Positions 5,926 to 48,535 of a stretch of 64,000 nucleotides of DNA are shown in pieces; the first letter of the stretch is position 1, and every line of letters starts with the position of its first letter. The stretch spans positions 1,692,575 through 1,756,574 of the forward strand of contig JAJVIF010000001.1 of the NCBI GenBank assembly GCA_022072165.1, read 5' to 3'. The notes beneath the pieces were generated by a model that saw only the letters and a program-made list of their open reading frames with translations, was not told where the DNA came from and did no database searches. The position numbers and the translations under genes are program-made. Origin of the DNA: a bacterium. GTDB taxonomy: Bacteria > JAJVIF01.

Positions 5926-8787
5926 TTACTGCCAGCCAGTCGGCGGAGTCGTGAACCGGGCCGAGTTGGTGTACCCGGAGGTCCCCTTGGTCAGCAGGAT
6001 GTTCTGCCGGTTCACACAAACCAGCTGTCCCATGTTGAACAGGGTGCCACTCAGGTCCGGACCCGAAGCGTAGTTGCTCAGGTCCGAGTTGAAGTACCGC
6101 AGGTCCGGCTGGCCCGCACTGGTGTTGTTCGAGCCCACCACGATCTGCTGCTGCCCCTGGCTCGCCAGTACACCCCCGGAGGCGTCGCGCTGGTCAATCC
6201 AGATGTCAGCAGGGATCGAGAAGGTCGTACTGGTGTTCAGATTGATCACGGCCGGGTTGGGATTTCCCGACAACGTGGCGCTGACCGTGCCATCGCATTC
6301 GATGCGCAGGAGGCGGCCATTCGGGACAACCAGGTTGGACTGTGCCAGGATGAAGAAGGCCTTCGAGGCAAAGTCGATGGCGAAATCCTGGACGCGCCAG
6401 GTGGTCGTCGGTCCGAGGTTGTACGGAGCGTTCTTCAGGTCCATGGGATACGGGGCGGTGACGATCTCGGCGGTATAGCCGCCGGCAGTCCGGTCATACC
6501 GACGCAGGATGTTGTCCTGGCCGATGAGATACAGATTGCCGAGCTGATCCAGGGACATCGCCACGATCGGCGACGGTGCGGTGAAAGTCCCCTCAAACGC
6601 GGAGACAGTCGCACCACCCGTATAGGTCACCCAACCGACGTTGACACTCGCACCAGTCCCATAGCGGGTCGCGGGCGACCAGACATCCGTACCTGACGCA
6701 GTTGAGCGCCAGGACCAGACGATCCGGTCGTTGCTGTCAATCTCGACCTGCGTGGTCATGCCGACCTGCGTCGGGGACGCAATCGTCGCGATGGGAGTGG
6801 GATCAAGCACGCCCGCCGACGAATAGCGCGAGATGCTGAAAGGCCCAGATGAGCCAGGGGTGGTAGGAACCACGAAGTCGTCCGACCACGCGTTGTTGGA
6901 ACTGAACATGGCGATATCAGCCCAGCCCCAGAAGGTTCCGGTGGTGTTGGTTGCGCCAGCATAGGTGAAGGCTCCCGTGACCGGGGTGCCGCCCGCTGCA
7001 GCATACGCCGGACATGAGGCAGGTGCGTCGACTTCAAAGGTCGGGGTCGGCGCGATGTCGACCTGGGCGGTGCCATCATCCAGCCGCACCGGCAGGTCCC
7101 GAATATCGGGAGCCGGCGGATTGTGGGTGTAGGTGATGGGGGATGAGAGCGGAATCACACCCGCGTAAGGCGAGTTCACGGTCGTCGCCAGCGTGTAGGT
7201 GCCGTCATCATCCCAGTCCACCAGGATGTCGATCGGATCGTCATCGATATCCGCGAGGCCGTTGATGCTGATGCTGACGCTGCCGCCATCCGCCACATTC
7301 GGCGTGGTCACGACCACGGTGGCGCTCGGCGGAGCGTTGTCCGGGAGGAGTTCCACGGTGAACGCCTGATAGGTGACCGGATCCGGGGTGCTCGGCAGGG
7401 GAGCCAGGGACTCGTTCAGCCCGATGGTCAGGCCGGTCTGCGGGTCGGTCGCACGGACCATCCCGGTATAGGCACCGGCAGTCTGGCCAGAGCCCGCCGC
7501 CTTGGTGACCAGGGTGCTGTAGTACAGCGCATCGCCGGGGCGGCCGCTGTCCTGATCCACATCGCCACCCACGCCGGAGTCGTCATCGACCACGGTCGAG
7601 GCATCCGCCGTCACCGTCGCATCACCCAGCACGCCGGGGATACAGACATCAAGGGTCGGGGTCCCCGACTCGCCCTGCGCCACGTTGGTGAAGCTGGCGT
7701 CGTTCGCCAGATCTGTCTCGGCGGACTCGGTCGCCCGGGCATCCCAGTCCTCCACAAAGAAGCTCAGGGTCTGCGCGGAGATCGTGTTGGCGATAAAGCC
7801 AGCAGACTCAGGCAGGACCGAAATCTTGCCGACATCCAGCGCGCCGTGGGGCATGCGATAGGCAAAGAGGCTTGCATCCGGGCTCGCCGGAGGCAGGCGG
7901 TTCGCCTTCTTCTGTGCTGCCGTCGCGCCACCGCGGGGGTCGTTGTAGACCGCGATGATCGAGACATCGAGGCTGAACCCACCACTCAGCGCGGACTTGT
8001 CGAAGCTGACCGTGTTGCTCACGGTCTGCCCCTGGTGCATGACACCGTACCCGGTCCAGCCGTTGTTGCCGGCCCCAAACTCACTCCGGGTCCAGCCATC
8101 GCTGCCGAAGTTCCCGGTGACATCCCCACCATTGGAGACGCCGGAGCGGGGGTCCAGGGTCTCATCGACCAGCTGCTTGTACGGGTAGGTGTTGGCGGTC
8201 CCGGAGGTCGTCAGCAGCCCACCGGGGCTGTAGTACGCATCGGCGTTCGCCACCAGGTCCGTGTTGGCCACGCGATCGGTGAAGTAGGTGTTGCCGGTCG
8301 CCGACGGCACATCCGCCAGGAACAGCACCATCCCCGCCACGCCCAGGTCGGCGCGGTTCGTGGACCCGTTCGGGGTCCCGGTGGGATTGTTCGGGGCCGG
8401 GAACGGGTGCGCGACGGCGTACGCCAGATCCACGGTGGTCGCCGTCGCGGCCACGCCGGTGATCTTGAACGAGCCGGCGGTCAGGAAGCTGTCGATGGAG
8501 AGGAGATACAGGTCATCGTTCGCCTGCCCGGTGCGGGTCTCCTTCAGTCGGCTGGTCGCGGTCAGCGACGCCGGGTCCACATCGACCGTATAGATAGCGA
8601 GAGCGCTCTGATGGAGCATCCCCGACTGCGTCGGGGTGCCAAGAGCGGCCGAAGCGGAAGTCACGGGGTGCGTGCCATCAGGCGACGTCCCCGCTGTGGA
8701 CGGCATGATCGGGGTCGATCCGCCGCCAGAGCAGCCCAGGGCCACCAGGGCCAGGCTGCCCGCGAGCCACCATGCAACTGTGCGCAT
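5926..8787 (-). CDS. Lipoprotein, shared module plus divergent C-terminus (copy 3)
   Basis: This 953-residue protein uses ATG 8787 after GGAGGAAAC, the same start context as copy 2; the in-frame extension to 8916 is not used here because it passes the likely promoter. The lipobox VALGC gives Cys19. Residues 1-480 are the shared module, almost identical to copy 2. Residues ~490-560 contain a PKD-like segment (DPIDILVDWDDDGTY) also present in copy 1. The remainder has propeller-like repeats (LDQLGNLYLIGQDN, GRLLRIECDG) unlike the C-terminus of copy 2. A single conserved module is thus fused to different distal domains. Function is unknown; an extracellular location is inferred. Confidence 0.9.
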   Translation of the reverse strand: MRTVAWWLAGSLALVALGCSGGGSTPIMPSTAGTSPDGTHPVTSASAALGTPTQSGMLHQSALAIYTVDVDPASLTATSRLKETRTGQANDDLYLLSIDSFLTAGSFKITGVAATATTVDLAYAVAHPFPAPNNPTGTPNGSTNRADLGVAGMVLFLADVPSATGNTYFTDRVANTDLVANADAYYSPGGLLTTSGTANTYPYKQLVDETLDPRSGVSNGGDVTGNFGSDGWTRSEFGAGNNGWTGYGVMHQGQTVSNTVSFDKSALSGGFSLDVSIIAVYNDPRGGATAAQKKANRLPPASPDASLFAYRMPHGALDVGKISVLPESAGFIANTISAQTLSFFVEDWDARATESAETDLANDASFTNVAQGESGTPTLDVCIPGVLGDATVTADASTVVDDDSGVGGDVDQDSGRPGDALYYSTLVTKAAGSGQTAGAYTGMVRATDPQTGLTIGLNESLAPLPSTPDPVTYQAFTVELLPDNAPPSATVVVTTPNVADGGSVSISINGLADIDDDPIDILVDWDDDGTYTLATTVNSPYAGVIPLSSPITYTHNPPAPDIRDLPVRLDDGTAQVDIAPTPTFEVDAPASCPAYAAAGGTPVTGAFTYAGATNTTGTFWGWADIAMFSSNNAWSDDFVVPTTPGSSGPFSISRYSSAGVLDPTPIATIASPTQVGMTTQVEIDSNDRIVWSWRSTASGTDVWSPATRYGTGASVNVGWVTYTGGATVSAFEGTFTAPSPIVAMSLDQLGNLYLIGQDNILRRYDRTAGGYTAEIVTAPYPMDLKNAPYNLGPTTTWRVQDFAIDFASKAFFILAQSNLVVPNGRLLRIECDGTVSATLSGNPNPAVINLNTSTTFSIPADIWIDQRDASGGVLASQGQQQIVVGSNNTSAGQPDLRYFNSDLSNYASGPDLSGTLFNMGQLVCVNRQNILLTKGTSGYTNSARFTTPPTGWQ
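7351..8787 (-). repeat. 1.44-kb near-identical direct repeat, unit 2
   Basis: Partner of 4154-5590; no insertion or deletion was noticed between the two units. Upstream of the start codons only short blocks such as GCTGTCATCCGTACGCGAGG remain shared, so the near-identity stops close to the ribosome-binding site. Confidence 0.9.
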
Positions 8788-8860
8788 AGTTTCCTCCTGC
8801 GAGAGTCCACAAAATAGTGTGCAGAAAGACGCTGTCATCCGTACGCGAGGGGCCGAACTG

Positions 8861-8866
8861 ATAGTA
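8861..8866 (-). promoter_or_regulatory. Candidate -10 element for lipoprotein copy 3
   Basis: TACTAT on the minus strand would give a leader of ~65 nt to ATG 8787. It shares the 362-nt gap 8788-9149 with the divergent promoter of the export operon. I see no gene in the rest of that gap. Confidence 0.35.
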
Positions 8867-9131
8867 CCCCGAAGAGCAAGATGAGGCGTGCGAGACTTCA
8901 CTGGCAGGGTGTCCATTGCAGCGACCTGTCGCGGTACTACTGCGACTGGCCTGGACTTCCAAGCCTGGGTTCCCGTGACCTATGGATTGGCAAGCGTAAC
9001 GTCTGCCGTGCCCACGAAGGGGCGACCGTGAAAGACGGTGAGCCTGAAATCCCCGGGCTTTTGGGTGCCTCCGATTATGCACCACCCCTAGCAGTACTGG
9101 CAATAGCGCAAGACGCGACCTATCGCGGCGC

Positions 9132-9137
9132 TATCAT
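9132..9137 (+). promoter_or_regulatory. Candidate -10 element of the ABC export operon
   Basis: TATCAT lies 12 nt before ATG 9150. A transcript starting ~7 nt after it would have a leader of only ~5 nt, and no Shine-Dalgarno site is visible. Confidence 0.45.
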
Positions 9138-9149
9138 CCCCGACACACG

Positions 9150-10283
9150 ATGCGACCTCGCCGCCACACCCCTCTCGCTCTCCTCCTCTGCCTGCTGGCA
9201 GCCCTCGTAAGTTGCCAGGCCCACGATGCGGCCCATCTCGATCTCACCGGCACGGTCGAAATCACCCGACTGACCCTCGCATCCCGGGTCGGCGGGCGAG
9301 TCGCGACCCACGCCGTTTCGGAGGGAGAAACAGTCGCTGCTGGAGCCATCGTGATCACGCTGACAGAGCCGGCACTCGCGGCCCAGGCATCCGTGCTGGC
9401 CGCTCAGCGGGCACAGGCCGAGGCGACTCTGGCGGAACTGGAAGCCGGAGCACGTCCTGAGGAAGTCGCGCAGGCCCGGGCAGTGCTGGCGGCCGCAGAG
9501 TCGCGACTCCACTTGCTGGAAGCCGGGAGTCGCGCTGAAGAACGCGCCCTCGCACGGACCGAAGCCGACCTCGCACGGGCGATCCTTGACCAGGCGGAAC
9601 GGGACGCCTCCCGCGCTCGCGACCTCTTCGCGGCGGGGGTCATCGCCCAACAAGAACTGGAACAAATCGAGCTGACCCGGACCCGGGCTGCCGATCAGTG
9701 GCGGCTCGCCGACCAACGCCTGCAACTGGCGGAAGCCGGCCCCCGCCCCGAAGAAGTCGCCATCCTGCGAGCACAGGTCGCCCAGCAGCAGGCCCAAGTC
9801 GCCCTCCTTGAGGCAGGACCGACACCCGAAGCCCTGGAACGCGCCCGGCAGTTGGTCCGGCAGGCGCAGGAGCAGGAAGCCGCACTGTCAGCAGACCTGG
9901 CGGAACTGGAGGTCCGGACCCCGCGGGCGGGAGTGGTCGACCGCCTGCTGCTGGACCCCGGGGAGGTCGCGATGCCGGGACAGGCCCTCTGTTCCCTCCG
10001 GGACCCGGCCGATGTCCGCCTCCGGGTCTGGCTCCCGGAGTCTCAGCTCGGACGAGTCCAGCCCGGCAACACCGGAACCGTGACACTCCATGGCGACCAG
10101 CCACCGTTGCAGGTGACCGTGGTTACCATCGCGAGTCAGGCCGAATTCACGCCCCGGAACATCCAGACGCCCCAGGAACGGGCGACACAGGTCTTCGCCA
10201 TGGACTGCCGCTTCACCGACCCGCCCGACTGGCTCCGGGATGGCATGACCCTGACAGTCCGCTTTGACCCCACCACCCCATGA
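9150..10283 (+). CDS. HlyD/YbhG-like membrane fusion protein of ABC exporter
   Basis: The 377-residue protein has a signal peptide ending in LVSC, so Cys22 may be lipid-modified and anchor it to the membrane. Residues ~40-75 form the first half of a biotinyl-lipoyl-like domain (SRVGGRVATHAVSEGETVAAG). Residues ~85-250 are an Ala/Glu/Arg-rich alpha-hairpin with recurring LEAG-x-RPEE units. The lipoyl half returns at ~255-285 (VRTPRAGVVDRLLLDPGE), followed by a beta-barrel. This is the layout of periplasmic adaptors linking an inner-membrane ABC pump to an outer channel. It overlaps the next gene by 4 nt. No outer-membrane channel gene is adjacent. The substrate is unknown. Confidence 0.88.
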   Translation: MRPRRHTPLALLLCLLAALVSCQAHDAAHLDLTGTVEITRLTLASRVGGRVATHAVSEGETVAAGAIVITLTEPALAAQASVLAAQRAQAEATLAELEAGARPEEVAQARAVLAAAESRLHLLEAGSRAEERALARTEADLARAILDQAERDASRARDLFAAGVIAQQELEQIELTRTRAADQWRLADQRLQLAEAGPRPEEVAILRAQVAQQQAQVALLEAGPTPEALERARQLVRQAQEQEAALSADLAELEVRTPRAGVVDRLLLDPGEVAMPGQALCSLRDPADVRLRVWLPESQLGRVQPGNTGTVTLHGDQPPLQVTVVTIASQAEFTPRNIQTPQERATQVFAMDCRFTDPPDWLRDGMTLTVRFDPTTP

Positions 10284-36683: not shown

Positions 36684-38222
36684 CTAAATCGCCGGATCGA
36701 CAGGCGGACCCTGTTCTTCGCCCGGCCGCTTGCCCGGGTCAGTACCGGGATCCGTCCCTGGATTGTTCCCGACGTCATAGTCCGTCGAGAGATTGCTCGG
36801 GACTTCCGCCGGCTCCAGCTCCTTCACGATTTCATCGAGCCGGACATCCGTCAGGCTCTCCAGAAACTCCACCAGATGCCCGACTTCCTCGTCTGTCAGG
36901 ACCGGTGGCTGCTTGAAGAACGCATCCAGGGTTGCCTTCTGCTTTTGCAGCGCGCCTTCGCTCTTGTTCACGGTCGAGCGCAGGTCCTCTGGGAGATGAC
37001 TGGTGTCCAGATTCCGGAAGCCCCGGACCGGGTCCAGGTGATGCCGGACCACCTGCTCCAGCGAACCAATCGCGCCGTTGTGCATGTACGGCCCGGTCTC
37101 CGCGACATTCCGCAGCGGGGGGGTCCGGAACCGATAGCTGTCTTCCGGCTTCCCGGTGATGTCGCCGCGACCCCGGTCTTCACCCGGAGTCCCGGCCTTA
37201 CCAGGACCGATCTCTGGCACCAGCAGGTTATGCAGCTTCTGGTCGGTCATCAGCGGGCCCGCATGACAACTGGAGCACTGGGCCTTCCCATAGAAGAGGA
37301 CCGCGCCTTCCTTCTGCGTGGCAGTCAGCGCGTACTGGTCCCCCTTGAGGTACCGGTCAAAGGGGGTATCGAGGGTCGTCAGACGTTCCGTCTGGAACGC
37401 TGCGAGGGCGTTACCCACATCGGCGATGGAAAACTCCCAGATCGGCTGGTCGGGATACGCCGCCTCGATGAGTGGGACGTAACCCGGTGTAAACCGGACG
37501 CGATTCGCGATGTTCTGCCAGATCGCGGTCGTGGAACTTTCTTCCTCGCGCGGGAAGGGGGGCATGAATCCTCCGGCATCCGGACCGCCAGTCAGCGGTG
37601 AAAACATGCCGTCCTTCGCGTGCATTTCCCGGTCATCGATCATGGCGAAGAGGGCCTGGGCTGCCAGGGCACCGCTGAGCCCGGAAGGTAAATCGCTCCC
37701 CGCCGGCGTCACCAGCCTACCGGTCGAGAGTTCCTCCACCCGGGCATCCCACAGCATCGTCTTCATCCCCGGGAGCCCCCGGTTAAAGACATCCGTGGCA
37801 TTTCGCGCGACCATCATCTGCCCTTCAAACAACCGACGCTCCTTGCCCAGTCCTTCACCCTGCGTCCCTTTCGAGAGGGGGATGGCGTCGTGCATCCGCA
37901 GGGTCGGGTGATGACAGCCCGAGCAGGAGATGTCACCCCGGGTGCTCAGGATCTTGTCGAAGAAAAGCATCCGTCCCAACTCGACCTCGTGCGGGTCCTG
38001 CGTCGCAGGAGTCGCCGGCGACTGCATGTTCTGCGCCGCTAGCGCGGTCCGCAGGCGGGTGTCGACATCCACGACCGGCGGGTCATCGGGCTTCGGACCG
38101 ACCGGCGGCTGGGTTGTGCTCCCGCCACCTCCGCACCCCGCCAGCAGCAACATCGCCAGGCTCGTCAGGACTCCTGGGCCCCACACATGTCGTCGTCCCG
38201 CTGCGCTTTGAAGATCGCGCAT
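36684..38222 (-). CDS. Di-haem cytochrome c peroxidase-like lipoprotein
   Basis: From ATG 38222 (AAGGAG upstream) the protein has 512 residues. A lipobox LLLAGC makes Cys30 the likely lipid anchor. Two c-type haem sites are present: CSGCH (100-104) and CSSCH (316-320), the CcpA/MauG family arrangement. Regions around them (LGRMLFFDKILS, YGKAQCSSCHAGPLMTDQ) match bacterial cytochrome c peroxidases, which reduce peroxide with electrons from small cytochromes; MauG-like oxidation of a partner cannot be excluded. The C-terminus carries a Pro/Gly/Asp repeat tail (DPGTDPGTDPGK). A closely similar gene lies directly upstream. Confidence 0.9.
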   Translation of the reverse strand: MRDLQSAAGRRHVWGPGVLTSLAMLLLAGCGGGGSTTQPPVGPKPDDPPVVDVDTRLRTALAAQNMQSPATPATQDPHEVELGRMLFFDKILSTRGDISCSGCHHPTLRMHDAIPLSKGTQGEGLGKERRLFEGQMMVARNATDVFNRGLPGMKTMLWDARVEELSTGRLVTPAGSDLPSGLSGALAAQALFAMIDDREMHAKDGMFSPLTGGPDAGGFMPPFPREEESSTTAIWQNIANRVRFTPGYVPLIEAAYPDQPIWEFSIADVGNALAAFQTERLTTLDTPFDRYLKGDQYALTATQKEGAVLFYGKAQCSSCHAGPLMTDQKLHNLLVPEIGPGKAGTPGEDRGRGDITGKPEDSYRFRTPPLRNVAETGPYMHNGAIGSLEQVVRHHLDPVRGFRNLDTSHLPEDLRSTVNKSEGALQKQKATLDAFFKQPPVLTDEEVGHLVEFLESLTDVRLDEIVKELEPAEVPSNLSTDYDVGNNPGTDPGTDPGKRPGEEQGPPVDPAI

Positions 38223-38303
38223 CGCTGTTCTCCTTCCCGGACTCCACGAGGGCTCCGGGCGCTGACTGAATACCGTACTGTCGAAGAGGACTGGGTTGAC
38301 GGA

Positions 38304-38309
38304 ATGGTA
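38304..38309 (-). promoter_or_regulatory. Candidate -10 element of the first peroxidase gene
   Basis: TACCAT on the minus strand with TG directly before it; leader ~75 nt. Confidence 0.35.
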
Positions 38310-38358
38310 CACCCGTTACCGGAGATCGTCCGTTCTGATGATTTCCACACGAAGCGAC

Positions 38359-39846
38359 CTAGTCGTCGTAGCCCACCGGCAGTGCGCTGGGACTTGGCAA
38401 CACCGGGACTTCGGTCTTCAGCTGCGCCACCTTTGGATCGCTCAGCGTCATCAGGAATGCCAGCAACTGGCGAAACTCCCGTTCGGTCAGCTCGGGCCCG
38501 TTGAGGATCTGCGGATCTACGGTTGCCAGCAGGGCGCTCTCGACCGCCTCGCCTCGTCGCACGAGCGGCTGGACATCCGCCCGGAGCTTGTTGGGAGTAT
38601 AGGACCCCAGCATCCCGGCCGGATCAAAGTGATGCCGGACGGCATCCTCGAGCGTCGCATAGGCCCCCGAGTGCATGTAGGGCGCAGTGTCGGCCACCTG
38701 ACGCAATGGTGGGGTCCGGAACGCGAACTCCTGCGACGGGTCGCCGCTAATGGCAGCTCCGCCCCGGTCGAGACCTCCGATGCCCGGCAGTAACTGCGGC
38801 ACCGCCAGGTTGTGCAGCTGCTGATCCGTCATCAGCGTCCCGCTGTGGCAGGTGCTGCACTGGGCCTTCCCGTAGAAGAGCAATGCGCCGGCCTTTGCCT
38901 GGTCGCTGATGGCGTGCGGGTCACCGGCGAGCCAGTTGTCCCAGGGCGTATTCGGGAAACTGAACTCCACCCGCTCGAAGGCCGCGATGGCGTTGGCCAG
39001 ATGCTGGATGGTGAACTGCCCCCCTGTCACTTCCGGATAGGCGCGCTCCAACTGACGCTGATACCCCGGCACATCGGTGACACGCTTCATCACGCCGTTC
39101 CAGATCGCATGGGGATCATCCAGGAGGGCCAGTTCATTGCTCCCGTTCAGGACCGTCACGTCCCCCGGGGTCCCGCGCATTTCCGCCGGATTGAGCAGGG
39201 TATGGAGCACCTGTCCCGCCAGGGGACCATCCAGGCCAGCAATCGGCTCCGGGACATCCGGAATCCGGACCCGACCATCCGGCTCCTGCCGGATCCGGGC
39301 ATCCCACATCATCGTGGTCCACTCCGATTCGCCCCGGTTGAAGAGGTCCGGCGAGTGCCGGGCAATAAAGTCCCGCCCGGCCCCCAGGGTCCGCGCCGGT
39401 CCCAGTTTTTTGCCACCCGTGCCAATGGAGAGGGGGATATGGTCAGTCAGTGCATGTTCCGGCGCATGGCATCCCGCGCAGGAGATGTCCTTGTTGCCGC
39501 TCAGAATCTTGTCGAAAAAGAGAGCTTTCCCCAGTCGGACCTGCTCGGGGTCTTGCAGAATCTGTGGCTGTAGCGGCTGGAGTCGATGCTGGGCCGCGAC
39601 TCCACGCAAATCTGCTTCCAGTCCGGTACTCATCGGACCCTTCGGCATCCCGAAGGTCGTGAGCGCGGCGGTCGCGCTCCCTGCCAGTACCAGGACCGTC
39701 ACCAGCGGCAGCAACATCATCCGGGGAATGAGGTCTGGCTGGCGGAGCCGGACACGTCGCGAGGCATGGGCAGCCTTGCGGCGTCGATATTGCTCTCGCA
39801 TCGCAGCGAGCGAACGACGAAATTTCGGTTCCGGCGTAGCAATCAT
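38359..39846 (-). CDS. Di-haem cytochrome c peroxidase-like membrane-anchored protein
   Basis: The 495-residue protein starts at ATG 39846 with GGAG ~9 nt upstream; a TTG two codons earlier is the only longer option. An Arg/Lys-rich cytoplasmic start leads to one transmembrane helix (~44-64, around MLLPLVTVLVLAGSATAAL), so it is membrane-anchored rather than lipid-anchored. Haem sites are CAGCH (123-127) and CSTCH (330-334), with LGKALFFDKILS and YGKAQCSTCHSGTLMTDQ nearly identical to the neighbour. The two arose by duplication and differ in anchoring. They are ~137 nt apart, and a separate promoter for the second gene is likely. Confidence 0.9.
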   Translation of the reverse strand: MIATPEPKFRRSLAAMREQYRRRKAAHASRRVRLRQPDLIPRMMLLPLVTVLVLAGSATAALTTFGMPKGPMSTGLEADLRGVAAQHRLQPLQPQILQDPEQVRLGKALFFDKILSGNKDISCAGCHAPEHALTDHIPLSIGTGGKKLGPARTLGAGRDFIARHSPDLFNRGESEWTTMMWDARIRQEPDGRVRIPDVPEPIAGLDGPLAGQVLHTLLNPAEMRGTPGDVTVLNGSNELALLDDPHAIWNGVMKRVTDVPGYQRQLERAYPEVTGGQFTIQHLANAIAAFERVEFSFPNTPWDNWLAGDPHAISDQAKAGALLFYGKAQCSTCHSGTLMTDQQLHNLAVPQLLPGIGGLDRGGAAISGDPSQEFAFRTPPLRQVADTAPYMHSGAYATLEDAVRHHFDPAGMLGSYTPNKLRADVQPLVRRGEAVESALLATVDPQILNGPELTEREFRQLLAFLMTLSDPKVAQLKTEVPVLPSPSALPVGYDD

Positions 39847-39881
39847 GAGCAACGCTCCGGGGAAGAGGGCGGGATGCAGGA

Positions 39882-40782: not shown

Positions 40783-40817
40783 CAAAAAGAAAACGCTGCC
40801 GTCGATACGGCAGCGTT
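40783..40817 (-). terminator. Rho-independent terminator of the ATP synthase operon
   Basis: A perfect 11-bp stem (AACGCTGCCGT and its complement) with a 4-nt loop lies 33 nt after the atpA stop and is followed on the minus strand by TTTTCTTTTTGATG. It separates the operon from the convergent methyltransferase gene. Confidence 0.9.
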
Positions 40818-40849
40818 CTGGATTGTCAGACCCCGCAGCGATCCAGCCC

Positions 40850-42448
40850 TTAGGCCGACACTGCCTCGGTCTTCTTGATCACCTGGTGTCGGGTGAAGTC
40901 AATCGACGCCGGGAACTCCGCGGTCCCAGCCTGATACTTCGCCTTGAACTCAGCGATCGCCTTCTTCAGCAGCGACTCGACTTCGTCGTCAATCGCCAGC
41001 CGGGTCTGCATCTCGTGCAGCAACTGGCTCTGCTGGTGCTCCAGGTAATGATGGAAGCCCGCCTCGAACTTTCGGACATCCTCTTTGGCGATGTCATCCA
41101 GATGCCCCTGACCGGCGGCCCAGATGATGGCCACCTGGTGCTCGACAGGCATCGGGACATACTGCCCCTGCTTGAGGATCTCCACCATCCGCTCACCGCG
41201 AATCAACCGGGCCATGGTGGCTTTGTCGAGGTCGGAGCCGAACTGGGCGAACGCCGCCAGCTCGCGGTACTGCGCGAGGTCGAGGCGGAGCGTACCGGCG
41301 ACCTTCTTCATCATCTTGGTCTGTGCGTTTCCACCCACACGGGAGACGGAGATACCGACGTTGATGGCCGGGCGGACACCAGCGTAGAAGAGGTCCGCTT
41401 CCAGGAACATCTGACCATCGGTGATGGAGATGACGTTCGTCGGGATGTAGGCCGAGATGTCGCCCGCCTGGGTCTCAATCACCGGCAGTGCGGTCAGCGA
41501 CCCGGCACCCATCTCATTGGAGAGCTTGCAGGCCCGTTCCAGCAGGCGGCTGTGGAGATAGAACACGTCGCCGGGATACGCCTCGCGGCCCGGGGGACGG
41601 CGGAGGAGGAGCGAGAGTTCGCGATACGCGACCGCCTGCTTGGAGAGGTCGTCGTAGCAGCAGAGGACGTGGCCGCCATTGAAAGTGAAGAACTCTCCCA
41701 TCGCCGCACCGGCGTAGGGAGCGATGAACTGCATGGGGGCCGGGTCCGAGGCGGAGGCCACCACGACCGTGGTGTATTCCATCGCGCCGTACTCTTCGAA
41801 GGTCCGGATCACCTGCGCGACCGTGGACTTCTTCTGCCCCACCGCCACATAGATGCACTTAACGCCAGTCCCCTTCTGATTGAGGATGGCATCGACGAGC
41901 ACGGCGGTTTTGCCGGTCTGGCGGTCGCCAATGATCAGTTCGCGCTGGCCGCGTCCGATGGGGATCATGGAGTCAATCGCCTTGATCCCGGTCTGGAGCG
42001 GCTCCTTCACCGGCTGGCGCTGGATGATGCCCTCGGCCACCTTTTCAATCGGACGTGTTTCCGACGACGGGATCGGACCTTTGCCATCGATGGGCTCACC
42101 CACCGCGTTCACGACGCGCCCGATGACACCCTCGCCCACCGGCACGGAGGCGATGCGCTCGGTGCGGTGCACCTGCATCCCCTCTTTAATGTGACCGCTG
42201 TAGCCCAGAATCGCGGCGGCTACAGAGTCCTCTTCGAGGTTGAGCACGATGCCGTAGACCTTGGAGCCATCCGGGGCATCGGGGAACGACAGCAGTTCCA
42301 GGGCAGCGGCATCCTCGAGCCCGTAAATACGGGCCACGCCATCGCCGACCTGGAGCACGGTGCCGACCGACTCCATCTTCAGGTCCTGGTTGTACTTCTC
42401 GATCTCCTGCTGCAGGATCGTCGAGACTTCCTCGGGTCGCAGGGCCAT
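40850..42448 (-). CDS. atpA: ATP synthase F1 subunit alpha
   Basis: The 532-residue protein is the non-catalytic nucleotide-binding subunit of F1. The P-loop is GDRQTGKT (174-181), and [18 protein letters not shown] is typical of alpha rather than beta. The C-terminal helical region includes the usual QEIEKYN-rich start and the LYHEMQTRL-like end. It is the last gene before a strong terminator. In most bacteria gamma and beta follow alpha directly, but here they do not, so the operon is split. It lies 62 nt after atpH. Confidence 0.98.
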
Positions 42449-42510
42449 AACGTCTTTCAGCCTCTCTTCGTCGTCGTCCAGTCAGCGTCACTCGCGATGC
42501 GCCGATGCCG

Positions 42511-43068
42511 TTAATGCACCTGCGCCGCCTGCAGCGTCCGCTTCAGTTCCTGCAAACGATGGCGTACGGAGCCATCGATGATCCGGTTCCCCAGCCGGAG
42601 GATGACGCCCCCCAGGATGGACGGATCAATAGTGGTCTTCAGCCGGACTTCATGGCTGCTGAAGCGCTGCACTTCGGCGGTGAGCCGCTGCAACTGCTCC
42701 GGCGGGAGAGGAACCGCCGAGATGACCTCGGCTTCTTCCACACCCCGGCGCTCATCTGCCATCCGGCTAAAGCGATCCGCGATTCCCCGCAACTCCCGCT
42801 CCCGATGCTTGTCGATCAGGAGCAGCATGAGCTGCAGGACCGCCGGTGTCACCCGCTCGCCAAAGACCCGCTGCACCAGCCCCTTCTTGTCTGCAGCAGC
42901 GATCCTGGGGTTTTCCAGGAACGCGCTCAGGGACGGGGTGGTCGCCAGAATCTCCCCGATCGCGTCGAGGTCGTCATCGATCCGGTCCAGCGTCGCGCTG
43001 TCCGGACCAACCAGGCCCATCAGCGCGGTAGCGTAGCGATCGGCAACGATCTGATCAGACATGGACAC
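42511..43068 (-). CDS. atpH: ATP synthase subunit delta
   Basis: The 185-residue subunit links the F1 head to the peripheral stalk. The N-terminal DRYATALMGLV and the C-terminal region (LKTTIDPSILGGVILRLGNRI) are family-typical. GTG 43068 has a GAGG site 9 nt upstream; ATG 43062 two codons later is also possible. Either start overlaps the end of atpF. Confidence 0.95.
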   Translation of the reverse strand: MSMSDQIVADRYATALMGLVGPDSATLDRIDDDLDAIGEILATTPSLSAFLENPRIAAADKKGLVQRVFGERVTPAVLQLMLLLIDKHRERELRGIADRFSRMADERRGVEEAEVISAVPLPPEQLQRLTAEVQRFSSHEVRLKTTIDPSILGGVILRLGNRIIDGSVRHRLQELKRTLQAAQVH

Positions 43069-43543
43069 GGCGGAGGTCCTCGATGTAGCGATCGATCAGG
43101 CTGTGCTGTAGCGGGGTGTCCAGGCGCTTGCGGATGATCTCCTCGGCGGCCGAGGTCGCGCTCTGGGCGATGGCATCGCGGAAGGAGATCCGGGCTTTGG
43201 CGATCTCGCGATCGACATCCCCTTTCGCCTTGAGCAGCAGGTCCTGATACCGACGCTGTGCATCGGACAGCAGCTCTGCAGCAATCCGCTCACCTTCGGC
43301 CTGCGCGGCGGCTTCCCGCTTCGCACTTTCCTCGCTCAGACGGGCCAGGCGGGACTCGTAGTCCGCCTTCAGCTGCGTCAGCTCAGCCTGTTGCTGGTCC
43401 AGCTCGCTAAAGGTCCGTTGAATGGTCGCCTTGCGCTCATCCAGCAGTCCCACGACTGGTTTGACGGCTACCCGGCTCAGCACCCAGACATAGAGTGCGA
43501 AACCGATCGCCTGCGTAAGAGTCAGATCCCAGCCGGAAGTCAT
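43055..43543 (-). CDS. atpF: ATP synthase subunit b
   Basis: The 162-residue protein has one N-terminal transmembrane helix (~10-30) and a long charged coiled coil (ERKATIQRTFSELDQQQAEL onward), the peripheral stalk layout. It begins in a 4-nt overlap with the end of the other b-type gene. Together they form a b/b' heterodimer, as known for cyanobacteria and some other phototrophic bacteria. Confidence 0.93.
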   Translation of the reverse strand: MTSGWDLTLTQAIGFALYVWVLSRVAVKPVVGLLDERKATIQRTFSELDQQQAELTQLKADYESRLARLSEESAKREAAAQAEGERIAAELLSDAQRRYQDLLLKAKGDVDREIAKARISFRDAIAQSATSAAEEIIRKRLDTPLQHSLIDRYIEDLRRVHV

Positions 43544-44079
43544 GCGTGAATCGCCTCCTCCAGTTGCTGGCGCACCCCGGCTTCATAGGCGGCGCGATCC
43601 ACTGGCTCGGCCAGGGTCCGCTCCACCGTCGTGAAGGTCAGGGTCAGGACCTGCTCCAGGAGCTGATCCTTCGCGTTACTGAACTCTGCTTCCAGCTGCT
43701 GATGCCCGGCCTCGACCAGCGCCAGATACTCGGCGCGGGCCTGATCCTGCAGGGCCATCACTTCCCGCTTACCGGTATCGATGGCGGCCTGTGTTTTCGC
43801 CGCCGCAGCGGCCTCGACCTGTGCCCACTGGCGGTCATAGTCCTGCTTCAGGCGCTCCACCTCAGCGCGCTGCGCCTCGACCTGGTTGAGGCCAGACATA
43901 ATCTTTGTCTGACGCTCTTCCAGCAGGGCGAGCACCGGCCCGAAGACCAGTGAGCGCATGAGATTGAGGAACACCACAAAGAACAGGATGGTCAGTGCAA
44001 TGACCGTCCAGTCCGTGGCGTCATCGACCTGGGCGAGCGGCGAAGGATCCGCCGCCGCCAGGAACAGCAGCCAGTGCAT
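43540..44079 (-). CDS. atpF': ATP synthase subunit b' (second b-type)
   Basis: The 179-residue subunit has a transmembrane helix at ~25-45 (VIALTILFFVVFLNLMRSL) after an N-terminal hydrophobic stretch (MHWLLFLAAADPS) that could be a signal peptide. A long coiled coil rich in Glu/Ala/Gln follows. It precedes atpF in the order a-c-b'-b-delta-alpha, the cyanobacterial order. A GAGGT site precedes the ATG. Confidence 0.9.
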   Translation of the reverse strand: MHWLLFLAAADPSPLAQVDDATDWTVIALTILFFVVFLNLMRSLVFGPVLALLEERQTKIMSGLNQVEAQRAEVERLKQDYDRQWAQVEAAAAAKTQAAIDTGKREVMALQDQARAEYLALVEAGHQQLEAEFSNAKDQLLEQVLTLTFTTVERTLAEPVDRAAYEAGVRQQLEEAIHA

Positions 44080-44117
44080 CCGCGAGACCTCGGCGGGCGA
44101 AAGTTAGATGAGCCGGA

Positions 44118-44360
44118 CTAGACCGTGATCTTGCCCGACAGCACGAACACCGACACCAGCGCGTAGATGGTCAGCGCCTCGATGAAGGCGGCGCCGATGA
44201 TCATCGCGGTCTGAATCTGACCGGCGGCTTCCGGCTGGCGGCTCATGGCGGTGACGGCCTCGCCGACCGCGCGGCCCAGACCCAGAGCTGAACCAAAAGC
44301 GGCCACGGCCAGGGCCATGGGGACGGCAAAACCGGCGCCAAGAATGATGCTGCTTTCCAC
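44118..44360 (-). CDS. atpE: ATP synthase subunit c
   Basis: From GTG 44360 (AAGGAGT 7 nt upstream) the proteolipid has 80 residues, normal length; a longer in-frame ATG at 44396 would add a polar tail foreign to the family. Two helices flank the RQPE loop (AMSRQPEAAGQ). The ion-binding carboxylate is the Glu in AAFIEALTIYALV. The residue after it is Ala rather than the Ser/Thr of sodium-binding rings, so proton coupling is more likely; this is inference. Confidence 0.95.
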   Translation of the reverse strand: MESSIILGAGFAVPMALAVAAFGSALGLGRAVGEAVTAMSRQPEAAGQIQTAMIIGAAFIEALTIYALVSVFVLSGKITV

Positions 44361-44451
44361 GTACGGACTCCTTCTGTCTGACTTGTCGCTTGTCACGCAA
44401 CCCCGCTAAAGGGCTGCGGGAAAGTGTTTGCTCCCCGCAGGCTGACAGTCG

Positions 44452-45483
44452 CTAGTGCGACGTCACCGCGCCTTCGGGGACTCCGGGCAGGCCATGCACA
44501 TGACCCGCACCGTGGGCATCATGATGATGCTCCCCTTCATGGTGCTCTTCGTGATGGTGGCTCATGCTTCCGATGTACGCGCAGGTCAGCAGCGTAAAGA
44601 CCATCGCCTGCACAAACCCCACCAGCAGCCCCAGGAAGTAGAAGGGGAAATGGAACGGCAGGAAGAAGGCAGCGCCCAGCCCGATAAAGGCGGTCACCAG
44701 CATCTCCTCCCCGAAAATGTTGCCGAAGAGTCGCAGGGCCAGCGACACCGGCTTCACCAGCTCCCCGATGACGTGGAGCGGGAAGTTAATCGGGGCCATC
44801 CAGGCCGGCGCATCCGGCATCCCCGCCAGGTGCCCCAGCCAGCCACCAAAGCCGAGCTGGCGAATCCCCTGCAACTGCACCACCACAAAGACGCAGAGCC
44901 CCAGCGCAATGGTGGTCCGGAAGTCGGCGGTCACCGGCTTCATCATCGGCACCTGGCCGGAGTAGTTGTTGATCCAGATGAAGAGGAACAGGCTGCCAAT
45001 AAACACCACGAAGGGTTTCGCCTGCTCGCCCAGATTGCCATGGACAAAGTCCCGCAATCCCTGAATCAAAAACTCCACGAAGAGCTGCGCCCGGGACTCG
45101 GGGATCAGCTTCATCTTTCTGGTGGTTGTGGCCAGAAACGCAATCAGCAGTCCCATCCAGAGCGTGGCGTAGAAGAAATTCTCATACGCCATGATGGTGG
45201 TGTAGGCCTGCTTGTTGCCCCCGGCCTTCATGCTTTCCGCGACCCGGGTGGTCACGGTCGGCAGATGCGCTATCCCTTCGTCATGATTCTCATCGCCATG
45301 CGCGGCTTCGCCGTGATGCGGATCCGCCCCATGCGCATCGGCGGCATGGGGATCCGCGCCATGGGCCGCCCCATGACCACTGGCGGCAGCATCCGCTGCT
45401 CCGTGCAGCGCGGCATCGCTACCTTCGCGCTCGGCATGGGCCTGTCCCAGCAGGGGCCAGACGATGAAAGTGACGTGCGTCAT
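44452..45483 (-). CDS. atpB: ATP synthase subunit a with His-rich ends
   Basis: From ATG 45483 (AAAGGA upstream) the protein has 343 residues, far longer than the usual ~240-270. The core contains the conserved essential region PVSLALRLFGNIFGEEM and FVQAMVFTLLTCAYI. The extra length is an N-terminal segment (~25-70) with repeated HGA/DPH/AHG units and a C-terminal tail with clustered His (HHHEEHHEGEHHHDAHG). N-terminal residues ~1-20 could act as a signal peptide ending at AHA. The 114-nt gap to atpI contains a GCCCCC/GGGGGC hairpin without a U tract. Confidence 0.93.
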   Translation of the reverse strand: MTHVTFIVWPLLGQAHAEREGSDAALHGAADAAASGHGAAHGADPHAADAHGADPHHGEAAHGDENHDEGIAHLPTVTTRVAESMKAGGNKQAYTTIMAYENFFYATLWMGLLIAFLATTTRKMKLIPESRAQLFVEFLIQGLRDFVHGNLGEQAKPFVVFIGSLFLFIWINNYSGQVPMMKPVTADFRTTIALGLCVFVVVQLQGIRQLGFGGWLGHLAGMPDAPAWMAPINFPLHVIGELVKPVSLALRLFGNIFGEEMLVTAFIGLGAAFFLPFHFPFYFLGLLVGFVQAMVFTLLTCAYIGSMSHHHEEHHEGEHHHDAHGAGHVHGLPGVPEGAVTSH

Positions 45484-45597
45484 GCGTCCTTTTCTCGTAC
45501 CCAACCACCGTCACATGTGCCGGCAGGCGGGCATAGTGTGGCCCCCAGTGACGGGGGCGACTCCGGCGTCGGACTCTACAGCATTTTCCCGGTGGAC

Positions 45598-46023
45598 TCA
45601 AACGCCACTGGAGGGCTCCCGACCACGCGGGCTCCCTTTCTGGAGCCATGTCCCGGCGGCCCGCAGGGCGACCAGCACCAGGGGCAGAGTGATGCCGGCG
45701 GTCAACGCCGTCAGCCCCTCCACCGACCGACTCCAGAAGAGCAATCCCAGGAGCAGCGCAGGCAGCACCAGTAACACCAGCGCGCCGTACAGCGCCCCCG
45801 ATTGTTTGTCGATCGCCTCCGGGGGAGCGAGCAACGCCCGGATCATCCGCTCCAGTGAGTACAGATTTGCCAGCATCCAGACGACGCCACCGGTCCAGGA
45901 CCAAAGGGAGCCCCCGCCGCCATGCTGCGCGAAGTAGGCCATCCCCACGGGCAGGGCGATCGCCACTGCGACGGCGGTTCGTTGCAGGCTGAAGCTGTCG
46001 ACAGGCGGCGTGGAACCGGTCAT
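45598..46023 (-). CDS. atpI: ATP synthase subunit I (AtpI-like)
   Basis: The 141-residue protein has about four transmembrane helices (LQRTAVAVAIALPVGMAYF, then WMLANLYSLE, GALVLLVLPALLLGLLFWS and a last one near residue 115). Length, topology and position between atpZ and atpB match AtpI, an assembly helper for the c-ring. AtpI sequences are poorly conserved, so the call depends partly on position. Confidence 0.75.
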   Translation of the reverse strand: MTGSTPPVDSFSLQRTAVAVAIALPVGMAYFAQHGGGGSLWSWTGGVVWMLANLYSLERMIRALLAPPEAIDKQSGALYGALVLLVLPALLLGLLFWSRSVEGLTALTAGITLPLVLVALRAAGTWLQKGSPRGREPSSGV

Positions 46024-46034
46024 AAACCAGGAGC

Positions 46035-46541
46035 TTACCGGGTCCGGGACTTTTGGTCATCCCTGGCGGCCTGGGCATCCCGCTCCAGCTTCCGGCTATG
46101 ACGCAGCAACTCGATGATGCCGTTGTAGAACCCCAGTAGCACGCCAATGAGCATCGGGAGGTAGTTTGGCTCGCCGGTTCGGGGAAACAGGAACCAACGA
46201 TCTATGACGTAGCCCAGGATCGCACCACCAATGGGATAGGAGATGAAAATGAAGGCAAGACCGGCCGCTGGTCCGATGCCCCGCTGGCTCCCAATCGACA
46301 TGGTCCGCATGGCCCGTTGATATCGTTCTTCAGCGGGACCCACCGGGATTTTGGGCGCGACGGGTTCAGTAGTTTTGCCCATCCCGCTCTGCACCGCTTC
46401 CAGCGCTGCCAGCTTTTCGGCGGTCAGCGCTTCTTCCCGCTCCAGTGCGAGTTCCAGTTCGTCACGCAGCCGCGTCTCGTACTCCTGTGCGATCGCTTCT
46501 GCGGCTTCCTCAAACTCCCGTGCCTGCTCGTCGCGGTTCAT
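46035..46541 (-). CDS. atpZ: AtpZ-like protein (ATPase gene 1 family) with coiled-coil extension
   Basis: This 168-residue protein has an N-terminal ~60-residue Glu/Ala-rich coiled coil (EFEEAAEAIAQEYETRLRDE) and two C-terminal transmembrane helices (~95-145; GLAFIFISYPIGGAILGYVIDRW and PMLIGVLLGFYNGIIELL in shortened form). The double helix with DRW and GxxxG is the AtpZ pattern. A strong GAGGAGGT precedes the ATG. A CATACT hexamer at 46560-46565 on the minus strand, overlapping the end of the upstream gene, could be an internal promoter. Confidence 0.78.
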   Translation of the reverse strand: MNRDEQAREFEEAAEAIAQEYETRLRDELELALEREEALTAEKLAALEAVQSGMGKTTEPVAPKIPVGPAEERYQRAMRTMSIGSQRGIGPAAGLAFIFISYPIGGAILGYVIDRWFLFPRTGEPNYLPMLIGVLLGFYNGIIELLRHSRKLERDAQAARDDQKSRTR

Positions 46542-46565
46542 CTCACCTCCTCGACTGGGAGTATG

Positions 46566-46982
46566 TTACGGCGTCAGGTCCCCCGCCTGGTATTTCATGT
46601 AGCCCGTGAGATGCGTAATCGGGAAGGCGAATGCAATGCCAGCGTGGGGATTGTCGAGGTCTCCCACTTCCCCCTCGATCGCGCCGATGACCTCCCAGAC
46701 CGCGTTCTCCCCGTCCACGACACTCAGCACCGTGACGTTGAGATCTTTGCTGCTCTGGAGAAACTTGCTGATCGAGGCGATCAGCGGAATGTCTGGCGAC
46801 TGGGAACGATGCCGTCCCATGCCGATCGAATTGAACACCGTGGCTCCGTGTCCACGACGCGCCAGCGCTTTCAGCACGGCGTCCAGCTTCTCCTCACGGT
46901 CCAGGATGGCGACCACCACATAGGGTCGTTTGGCCTGGGATGGCACCACTTTGCCGGCAGCAGGGGAAGTCTCGTCAGACAT
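46566..46982 (-). CDS. PII-like signalling protein
   Basis: The 138-residue protein is probably a PII-superfamily ferredoxin-like fold (GHGATVFNSIGMGR, then VLSVVDGENAVWEVIGAIEG). Key blocks resemble PII-like proteins encoded beside CPA-type antiporters and bicarbonate transporters. It should form trimers that bind nucleotides and regulate a membrane partner. A tyrosine modification site is not evident; GIAFAFPITHLTGY ends the core. It starts 32 nt after the antiporter gene with AAGGAGTG as ribosome-binding site, so the antiporter is the likely partner. Confidence 0.72.
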   Translation of the reverse strand: MSDETSPAAGKVVPSQAKRPYVVVAILDREEKLDAVLKALARRGHGATVFNSIGMGRHRSQSPDIPLIASISKFLQSSKDLNVTVLSVVDGENAVWEVIGAIEGEVGDLDNPHAGIAFAFPITHLTGYMKYQAGDLTP

Positions 46983-47014
46983 GTGCGGTCACTCCTTGTT
47001 CATGACAGGCTGGA

Positions 47015-48472
47015 TCAGTCCTGGTCGGTGTAGTGCGCTGTACGGTACGGATTTTCATGGGCGGAGGCAGGAGCACCGACGATCGACTCAATCTGCGCGT
47101 CCTCAGCGATGCCTGCCAGGTCGGAGCCCAGCGGACCATCGTCCGTGGCTGCTGCCCCGCTGAAGACCAGCTTCAGCAACGGCGGCGTCACGAGGGTGGT
47201 CACCAGCACCATGACCACCATCACCGAAAAGATCGTCTGGTTAATGATGCCCGACTGCACTCCGATGTTCGCGATGATGAGTCCCACTTCTCCACGGCTG
47301 ATCATCCCGACCCCGACGCGCAATGCCTCCAGTGACTTGAACCCGGCGGGCAGACAGCCGAGATAGCACCCCCCCACTTTGGCGATGACCGCCACCACAC
47401 AAATGGCGACTGTGAAGAGGAACGCTCCCCATTCCGGGGTCCCCCCCTGAGCCAGCGCAGTAAAAGGGGCAAAGAGCGGACGGGCATCCGCGTTCAGCCC
47501 GATGTTGATGAAAAAGACCGGCACAAACAGGCTGTAGGTAATGGTCGAAATCCGCTCCTCCACCAGGTGTTTGTAGTGTGTCTGGGCGATCAGCAGTCCG
47601 GCGACATAGGACCCGGTGATAAACGCCACAGACCCGATCCACTCCGCGCCCCATGCCATCAGGAACGCGATGAACAGCACCATCGCCATCAGCGGCTGGG
47701 AGGTCGGCAGATTTTCGCTGTAGGCCAGCAGCCGCGGAATCAGGCGCCCCATCAGGAACCAGGACCCGACAAAAAAGAGGGCCATGCACGACAACAACAC
47801 AGCGATGGAAGCACCAGCGTCCAGGTGCAGCGACGTGGAAATCAGCGTCGCGAGATCCTTCATCCCGTTGTGTTCGGCTTCCCCGGACCCGCTGGTGGCA
47901 TGGAACGCCAGGATGACCGACACCAGCACAATGCCGATGACGTCATCGATCACCGCAGCTCCGAGAATGGTGGTTCCCTCTTTGCTCCGCAGATGCCCCA
48001 ACTCCAGCAGCGTCTGGGCGGAAATCGACACCGAGGTCGCCGCCAGAATGGTCGCGATAAACAGGGCATTAAAGAGGTGCATGGGACCATCGACCATGCC
48101 CCCCAGCAGGAGGCTCGCCCCAACTCCCAACACGACGGGGCCGATTACCCCGCCGACCGCCCCCATGAACGCCGCCTTGCCAACCCGGGCCATCGCGGCC
48201 AGGTCGGTTTCCATCCCGGCGATGAACATCAGCAGCAGAACACCGATTTCGGCCAGCTCGTGGATCGTGGTGAAGACGCTGTGGCCGTGGTCACCGTGGG
48301 CGGCGAACAGCGCGAACGCCGGTAAGTTCAGGAGGGTCGGGCCCAATACCAGCCCGGCGAGAATCTCGCCCAGGATCGCGGGTTGTTTGAACCGCAGGAA
48401 GAGGATTCCTGCGCCCTTCGCCACCACGATGATGGCGGCGAGCAGAAGGAGCAACTGCAGAAGTGGCGACAT
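47015..48472 (-). CDS. CPA2 family cation/proton antiporter (KefB/NapA-like)
   Basis: From ATG 48472 the protein has 485 residues; GTG 48505 is an alternative. About twelve to thirteen transmembrane helices are visible. QPAILGEILAGLVLGP is the N-terminal CPA2 signature, and VIDDVIGIVLVS carries the paired acidic DD of the ion-binding site. The C-terminal ~35 residues are hydrophilic (AEDAQIESIVGAP), too short for a TrkA-N domain. It would exchange Na+ or K+ for protons. It precedes the PII-like gene and the atp genes on the same strand, so it may be cotranscribed with ATP synthase. Confidence 0.93.
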   Translation of the reverse strand: MSPLLQLLLLLAAIIVVAKGAGILFLRFKQPAILGEILAGLVLGPTLLNLPAFALFAAHGDHGHSVFTTIHELAEIGVLLLMFIAGMETDLAAMARVGKAAFMGAVGGVIGPVVLGVGASLLLGGMVDGPMHLFNALFIATILAATSVSISAQTLLELGHLRSKEGTTILGAAVIDDVIGIVLVSVILAFHATSGSGEAEHNGMKDLATLISTSLHLDAGASIAVLLSCMALFFVGSWFLMGRLIPRLLAYSENLPTSQPLMAMVLFIAFLMAWGAEWIGSVAFITGSYVAGLLIAQTHYKHLVEERISTITYSLFVPVFFINIGLNADARPLFAPFTALAQGGTPEWGAFLFTVAICVVAVIAKVGGCYLGCLPAGFKSLEALRVGVGMISRGEVGLIIANIGVQSGIINQTIFSVMVVMVLVTTLVTPPLLKLVFSGAAATDDGPLGSDLAGIAEDAQIESIVGAPASAHENPYRTAHYTDQD

Positions 48473-48526
48473 AGCGGCCTGCTTTGCGGACGGTGTCCCA
48501 GCCACTCAGGGGGCTGTCGGGCCGGG

Positions 48527-48535
48527 ACTGTAGCA
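48527..48535 (-). promoter_or_regulatory. Extended -10 promoter of the antiporter-PII-atp unit
   Basis: The minus strand reads TGC followed by TACAGT, ~55 nt before ATG 48472. No strong promoter is seen between it and atpZ apart from CATACT at 46560-46565. Confidence 0.5.

What the first reader, a model, noticed from the sequence alone, without database searches (positions are those of the whole stretch)
40850..48535. Antiporter and PII-like gene fused in order to an ATP synthase operon
A CPA2 antiporter, a PII-like protein and eight atp genes lie on one strand with small gaps (32, 24 and 11 nt, then overlaps) and one clear terminator at the end. This suggests joint control of cation/proton exchange and ATP synthesis, with the PII-like protein as a nucleotide or metabolite sensor. 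I do not know of a described system with this order.
Basis: partly seen in the sequence, partly recalled or inferred. Interest (0 to 1): 0.7.

Follow-up and report, generated by a model that had tools for sequence, protein, structure and literature searches.

The report
PII-like antiporter regulator beside ATP synthase
A gene cluster in an uncultured bacterium from a small phylum places a sodium/proton antiporter and a small PII-like protein, a likely nucleotide sensor, at the head of the ATP synthase operon; the PII-like protein belongs to a widespread family that usually sits next to such antiporters, which suggests it controls them.

Summary
On the minus strand a NapA-like CPA2 antiporter, a PII-like protein and eight atp genes (Z-I-B-E-F-F'-H-A) run to a good terminator at 40819-40790. 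Gaps of 32, 24 and 11 nt are right, but "then overlaps" is not (114, 55, 38, -4, -14, 62 nt), and atpG and atpD lie elsewhere. The PII-like protein has the PF00543 profile signal and a PII fold, but none of 146 relatives carries a GlnB/GlnK signature. A survey of 385 diverse genomes gave the main result: 45 of 66 family loci have a cation/proton antiporter within 2.5 kb on the same strand (41 CPA-type, 5 Mrp, one both), and 43 have a PTS EIIA gene or domain. I found no paper describing a PII-antiporter pair. The atp linkage is local: PII-atpZ recurs in one classmate, antiporter-PII in another (followed by a terminator), and a looser PII-atpI-atpB linkage in an unrelated lineage. Best reading: the PII-like protein gates the antiporter in response to nucleotides, and joint transcription matches antiport to proton-driven ATP synthesis. 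The first part is well supported by context; the second rests on gene order alone.

The parts
47015..48472 (-). CPA2 cation/proton antiporter, NapA-like, 485 aa, two-aspartate motif (IDD), no C-terminal RCK domain matched
   Evidence: Pfam Na_H_Exchanger 2e-60 as the only Pfam match; phmmer to T. thermophilus Na+/H+ antiporter structures 5bz2/4bwz, E about 1e-38, with ILGAAVIDDV aligned to ILGAAVIDDV; 50% identical to the antiporter beside PII in G002
46566..46982 (-). PII-like protein, 138 aa, with an 18-residue N-terminal extension and a degenerate T-loop holding the conserved IP[IL] motif; member of the antiporter-linked PII-like family
   Evidence: PF00543 21.2 bits; family profile hits PII in PDB, E 2e-4; AlphaFold2 model, beta-alpha-beta-beta-alpha-beta, core pLDDT above 90; Foldseek GlnK1 2e-6, also PstA
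46035..46541 (-). AtpZ-like protein (F0F1 gene 1), 168 aa with a charged N-terminal extension
   Evidence: Sub-threshold PF09527 (15.3 bits); BLASTP E 0.001 to the protein at the same position in G001
45598..46023 (-). AtpI-like membrane protein, 141 aa
   Evidence: Position and hydrophobicity; no Pfam hit; weak similarity (E 0.004) to G001's AtpI, itself PF03899 2.8e-6
45573..45601 (-). Promoter-like pair TTGAGT-17-TAGAGT before atpB; possible internal promoter
   Evidence: Read from the sequence; 8 of 12 matches, below the scan's threshold; TANAGT is intergenic 2 times against 0.7 expected in the window
44452..45483 (-). atpB, F0 subunit a
   Evidence: PF00119 8.6e-52
44397..44451 (-). atpB-atpE spacer with a GC-rich hairpin and no T run
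   Evidence: Folding z only -1.1
44118..44396 (-). atpE, F0 subunit c; lacks the Gln and Glu-Ser/Thr of sodium-type rings, so predicted proton-coupled
   Evidence: PF00137 1.4e-13; alignment with classmates; reading of ion type from general knowledge
43540..44079 (-). atpF, subunit b
   Evidence: PF00430 1.3e-16
43055..43543 (-). second atpF (b or b'), overlapping by 4 nt
   Evidence: PF00430 6.5e-15
42511..43068 (-). atpH, subunit delta, overlapping by 14 nt
   Evidence: PF00213 9.7e-49
40850..42448 (-). atpA, subunit alpha
   Evidence: PF00006 8.8e-81
40790..40819 (-). intrinsic terminator of the operon
   Evidence: 13-pair stem plus T run; fold z -2.5

Best explanation
The PII-like protein is a small-ligand-sensing regulator, probably a trimer, of the antiporter beside it. 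When a nucleotide signal (most likely adenine-nucleotide energy status) changes, its remodelled hydrophobic T-loop docks on the cytoplasmic face of the antiporter and gates Na+(K+)/H+ exchange, as SbtB does to SbtA and GlnK to AmtB. In this organism the antiporter-regulator pair heads the ATP synthase operon, so the machineries that use protons for antiport and for ATP synthesis are made in step. Shown: gene order, PII superfamily membership, family-wide linkage to antiporters, loss of canonical PII signatures. Inferred: ligand, oligomer, docking, sign of regulation, co-transcription.
For: In a survey of 385 diverse genomes, 65 carry the family. Of 66 loci read, 45 have an antiporter within 2.5 kb on the same strand. 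Over all 146 loci, no CPA antiporter lies on the opposite strand within 2.5 kb and only one lies 4 kb or more away. Many antiporter genes abut or overlap the PII-like gene. Antiporter type clusters on the PII tree: the Mrp group needs 4 changes against 30 expected. EIIA genes or fusions accompany the module in 43 of 66 and 67 of 80 loci. An EIIA protein, PtsN, is shown to inhibit the E. coli K+/H+ antiporter YcgO directly (PMC11808508). PII-family proteins gate transporters by T-loop docking (PMC8352866; PMC10710835). Linked antiporters are mostly transmembrane-only in length (median 415 aa), so an external sensor is plausible. PII-atpZ adjacency recurs in G001, whose PII is only about 30% identical.
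Against: No binding, transport or expression data exist. No canonical ATP-site signature is present, so the ligand is unknown. About a third of surveyed loci (21 of 66) have no antiporter within 2.5 kb. Diadenylate cyclase is not enriched among carriers (60 of 65 against 343 of 385 overall) and was not found in five carriers, two of them rated 99-100% complete, which argues against c-di-AMP as the general ligand. A 114 nt gap with a weak promoter-like pair precedes atpB.
Confidence: 0.5

Rival explanations
1. The antiporter and PII-like protein form a functional pair, but their place before the atp operon is incidental: neighbouring or read-through transcription without joint regulation.
For: The pair stands apart in G002, where a strong terminator (fold z -3.7) follows PII. 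Only 3 distinct genomes, the window's included, are atp-linked among 147 loci. A promoter-like pair precedes atpB.
Against: PII-atpZ is tight (24 nt here, about 12 nt in G001) across families of the class at roughly 30% PII identity, so the order appears to have been kept.
Confidence: 0.32
2. The PII-like protein acts mainly on the ATP synthase (for example through AtpZ/AtpI or F1), and the antiporter is the passenger.
For: G001 and G358 have PII beside atp genes with no antiporter in view, and neither has a close homologue of this antiporter.
Against: Across the family, linkage is to antiporters and hardly ever to atp genes. In G358 PII is closer to tatC (18 nt) than to atpI (about 176 nt). 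G001's contig ends 268 nt before PII.
Confidence: 0.12
3. It is an ordinary nitrogen-signalling PII (GlnB/GlnK) that happens to lie here.
For: PII fold and sub-threshold PF00543 match.
Against: None of 146 relatives has either PROSITE PII signature, while the E. coli GlnB control has both. No GxGK motif occurs. The usual neighbours are antiporters and EIIA genes.
Confidence: 0.03

Closest known systems
SbtB-SbtA (PII-like regulator of the cyanobacterial bicarbonate transporter; PMC8352866)
   Same: A small PII-like protein encoded beside an elevator-type secondary transporter; altered PII core; T-loop as the docking element (shown for SbtB, inferred here)
   Different: Partner here is an H+-coupled CPA2 antiporter; no CGPxGC tail; different T-loop motif (IP[IL]FAGL); SbtB does not appear among the sequence hits or the top 50 fold hits
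GlnK-AmtB (canonical PII and ammonium channel)
   Same: Gene pair of transporter and PII; same fold (Foldseek best hits are GlnK)
   Different: No uridylylation motif, no C-terminal PII signature; antiporter partner
PstA/DarA c-di-AMP receptors
   Same: PII fold; one relative matches PF06153 at 1.9e-4
   Different: Weak, single match; carriers are not enriched for diadenylate cyclase
EIIANtr (PtsN)-YcgO antiporter control (PMC11808508)
   Same: A cytosolic metabolic signal protein controls a cation/proton antiporter; EIIA genes are the commonest third member of this module
   Different: The window locus has no EIIA gene in the operon; no PII-like partner is described in that paper's abstract
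Kef/CpaA/KhtTU antiporters with RCK sensors (general knowledge)
   Same: A nucleotide-type sensor attached to a CPA antiporter
   Different: Sensor there is an RCK domain, here a PII-like protein encoded in trans

Membership tests
PII superfamily (PF00543 fold) | Sequence profile of P-II | tested here: met
   Window protein 21.2 bits, below cut-off, but all 45 aligned relatives match, best 2e-9; family profile hits PII structures at 2e-4
PII superfamily (PF00543 fold) | Ferredoxin-like beta-alpha-beta-beta-alpha-beta fold | tested here: met
   AlphaFold2 model and Foldseek GlnK1 E 2e-6
PII superfamily (PF00543 fold) | Trimer | not tested
   Only a single chain was predicted
Canonical GlnB/GlnK | Uridylylation-site signature Y-[KR]-G-[AS]-[AE]-Y | tested here: not met
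   0 of 146 relatives; E. coli GlnB control positive
Canonical GlnB/GlnK | C-terminal signature with the GDGK nucleotide loop | tested here: not met
   0 of 146; GxGK in 0 of 146
SbtB | Linked sbtA bicarbonate transporter | tested here: not met
   Neighbour is a CPA2 antiporter
SbtB | Binding of AMP/cAMP | not testable with these tools
   Needs purified protein
PstA/DarA | Match to PF06153 / NF058593 | tested here: not met
   Window protein no match; 1 of 45 relatives weakly
CPA2 antiporter, NapA type | Na_H_Exchanger domain with two-aspartate motif | tested here: met
   PF00999 2e-60; ILGAAVIDDV aligned to the Thermus Na+/H+ antiporter
CPA2 antiporter, NapA type | Na+/H+ exchange activity | not testable with these tools
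   Needs transport assay
F-type ATP synthase operon | Full subunit set in one operon | tested here: not met
   a, c, b, b', delta, alpha here; gamma and beta on contig C4

The most novel reading that the evidence does not exclude
A widespread, undescribed class of PII-like proteins, often with a PTS EIIA partner, forms a general control module for cation/proton antiporters (CPA2 and Mrp), and in this phylum the module has been built into the ATP synthase operon so that one sensor sets both the cation and the proton side of the energy budget.
Probability: 0.3. Interest if true: 0.75.

Novelty: new variant of a known kind. Interest (0 to 1): 0.55.

Why it matters
How bacteria match cation/proton exchange to their energy state is poorly known outside the Kef/RCK systems. 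A recurrent PII-like protein beside CPA2 and Mrp antiporters, often with an EIIA regulator, offers a concrete, testable sensor. If it also shares a transcript with the ATP synthase, it would tie the proton budget of antiport and ATP synthesis to one signal.

Tried and rejected
c-di-AMP as family ligand: diadenylate cyclase co-occurrence shows no enrichment, and five carriers lack a match. Canonical nitrogen PII: signatures absent. Sodium-coupled ATP synthase fitting a Na+ antiporter: the c subunit lacks the sodium-type residues (interpretation from general knowledge). Extending the atp linkage in the phylum of G358: only 4 genomes are held, and the other two carriers are not atp-linked. Promoter scan: no sigma-70 sites at threshold anywhere in the region, so it does not inform on operon structure. 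Literature: nine of ten full-text searches ran on PII or the atp operon with antiporters and gave no description of a PII-antiporter pair; the tenth found PtsN-YcgO. Only open-licence PMC papers are searched.

Full report
What is there. The window lies in contig C1 of a 3.26 Mb genome whose phylum has only four held genomes. On the minus strand, after a TPR-protein gene and a 171 nt gap, come a CPA2 antiporter, a PII-like protein, AtpZ- and AtpI-like proteins, and atpB, E, F, F', H and A, ending in a strong terminator. AtpG and atpD are on another contig, separated by other genes. The antiporter's best solved relative is the Thermus Na+/H+ antiporter NapA, and the two-aspartate motif is conserved. 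The c subunit looks proton-type.

The PII-like protein. It scores just below the P-II cut-off, and a genome-wide search for that family found no canonical PII in its genome. Its relatives make the case: all 45 aligned members match PF00543, the family profile finds PII structures, and the predicted model has the PII fold with a low-confidence T-loop at about residues 52-70. None of 146 relatives has a canonical PII signature, and the GxGK nucleotide motif is absent. Instead, the T-loop carries a conserved IP[IL]-type hydrophobic motif (a loose pattern for it is met in 130 of 146; alignment). So it belongs to the PII superfamily but is not a GlnB/GlnK; ligand and oligomer are untested.

The family's company. 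A profile built from six members found the family in 65 of 385 diverse genomes. I fetched 66 loci, called ORFs mechanically, and classified neighbours with profiles seeded from verified genes, spot-checked with Pfam. Within 2.5 kb on the same strand, 41 have a CPA-type antiporter and 5 an Mrp antiporter (45 distinct loci); 43 have a PTS EIIA gene or fused domain. A separate scan of 84,980 genomes gave 80 named loci: 33 with Mrp, 14 with CPA, 67 with EIIA, from Spirochaetota, Aerophobota, Gemmatimonadota, Aminicenantes, Calditrichota and others. That scan favours relatives of its seed, so its proportions are not a census, and some genomes occur in both sets. Over all 146 loci no CPA antiporter lies on the opposite strand within 2.5 kb, and only one lies 4 kb or more away. 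The window's own genome has just three PF00999 genes in 3.26 Mb, so such closeness by chance would be rare. A tree of 131 members groups them by antiporter type far more than shuffled labels do, though long branches make parts of it unsure.

The atp linkage. In the phylum, G001 has PII-atpZ-atpI-atpB with about 12 nt between PII and atpZ, but its contig begins 268 nt before PII, and the genome has no close homologue of this antiporter. G002 has antiporter-PII, then a terminator and the contig end, with its atp operon on another contig. G003 (82% complete) has no PII hit. Outside the phylum only G358 (= L107) has PII near atpI-atpB, and there PII is closer to tatC. The three-part order is therefore seen whole only in this genome, but its two halves each recur in a different classmate.

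Mechanism. PII-family proteins are known to gate AmtB, Amt1, Nrt, Urt and SbtA (table in PMC10710835). SbtB inserts its T-loop into the cleft between the core and gate domains of SbtA, a 5+5-fold elevator transporter topologically like ASBT (PMC8352866). CPA2 antiporters share that general elevator design (general knowledge). The common third partner, EIIA, has a direct precedent: unphosphorylated PtsN binds and inhibits the K+/H+ antiporter YcgO (PMC11808508). I therefore infer that the PII-like protein gates the antiporter in response to an adenine nucleotide. c-di-AMP is not supported as the general ligand. Joint control with ATP synthase is a hypothesis resting on order. I would put about 0.65 on antiporter regulation by this protein and about 0.5 on the combined claim.

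Novelty and limits. I found no held paper describing a PII-antiporter pair, but the library has only open-licence papers. The kind (PII-like protein beside a transporter) is known; the partner class, the EIIA association and the joining to an atp operon are the new variant. No expression, binding or transport evidence is available, MAG contigs are short, and the atpZ/atpI identities are weak.

Noticed in passing
L011:3874-4713 and 6442-9339; L196:6693-7511 and 2040-4829; L197:3065-3904: In three classmates a secreted-looking protein of 273-280 aa lies between atpH and atpA (38-72% identical), and in two a 930-966 aa secreted-looking protein lies between atpA and atpG (29% over 913 aa). None of those scanned has a Pfam match; they are absent from the window operon.
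   Followed up: partly
L205 (G000:C4:100000-114000): In the window's genome atpG and atpD lie on another contig, about 4 kb apart with other ORFs on both strands between them, so the ATP synthase genes are split.
   Followed up: partly
L016, L086, L091, L095, L097, L104, L105: Apparent natural fusions of a PTS EIIA domain to the PII-like domain (about 275 aa), each next to a CPA-type antiporter; evidence that the two regulators act together.
   Followed up: partly
L013, L054, L055, L108, L109, L015, L050: Family members without an antiporter nearby (for example after a HAD-like phosphatase gene, or in what look like purine-synthesis gene regions); their partner is unknown.
   Followed up: no
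window 36684-39852, minus strand: Two adjacent di-haem cytochrome c peroxidase (MauG-type) genes in tandem.
   Followed up: no
window 44397-44451: GC-rich hairpin just before atpE without a T run; possible translational control of subunit c, but folding is not clearly better than shuffles (z -1.1).
   Followed up: partly
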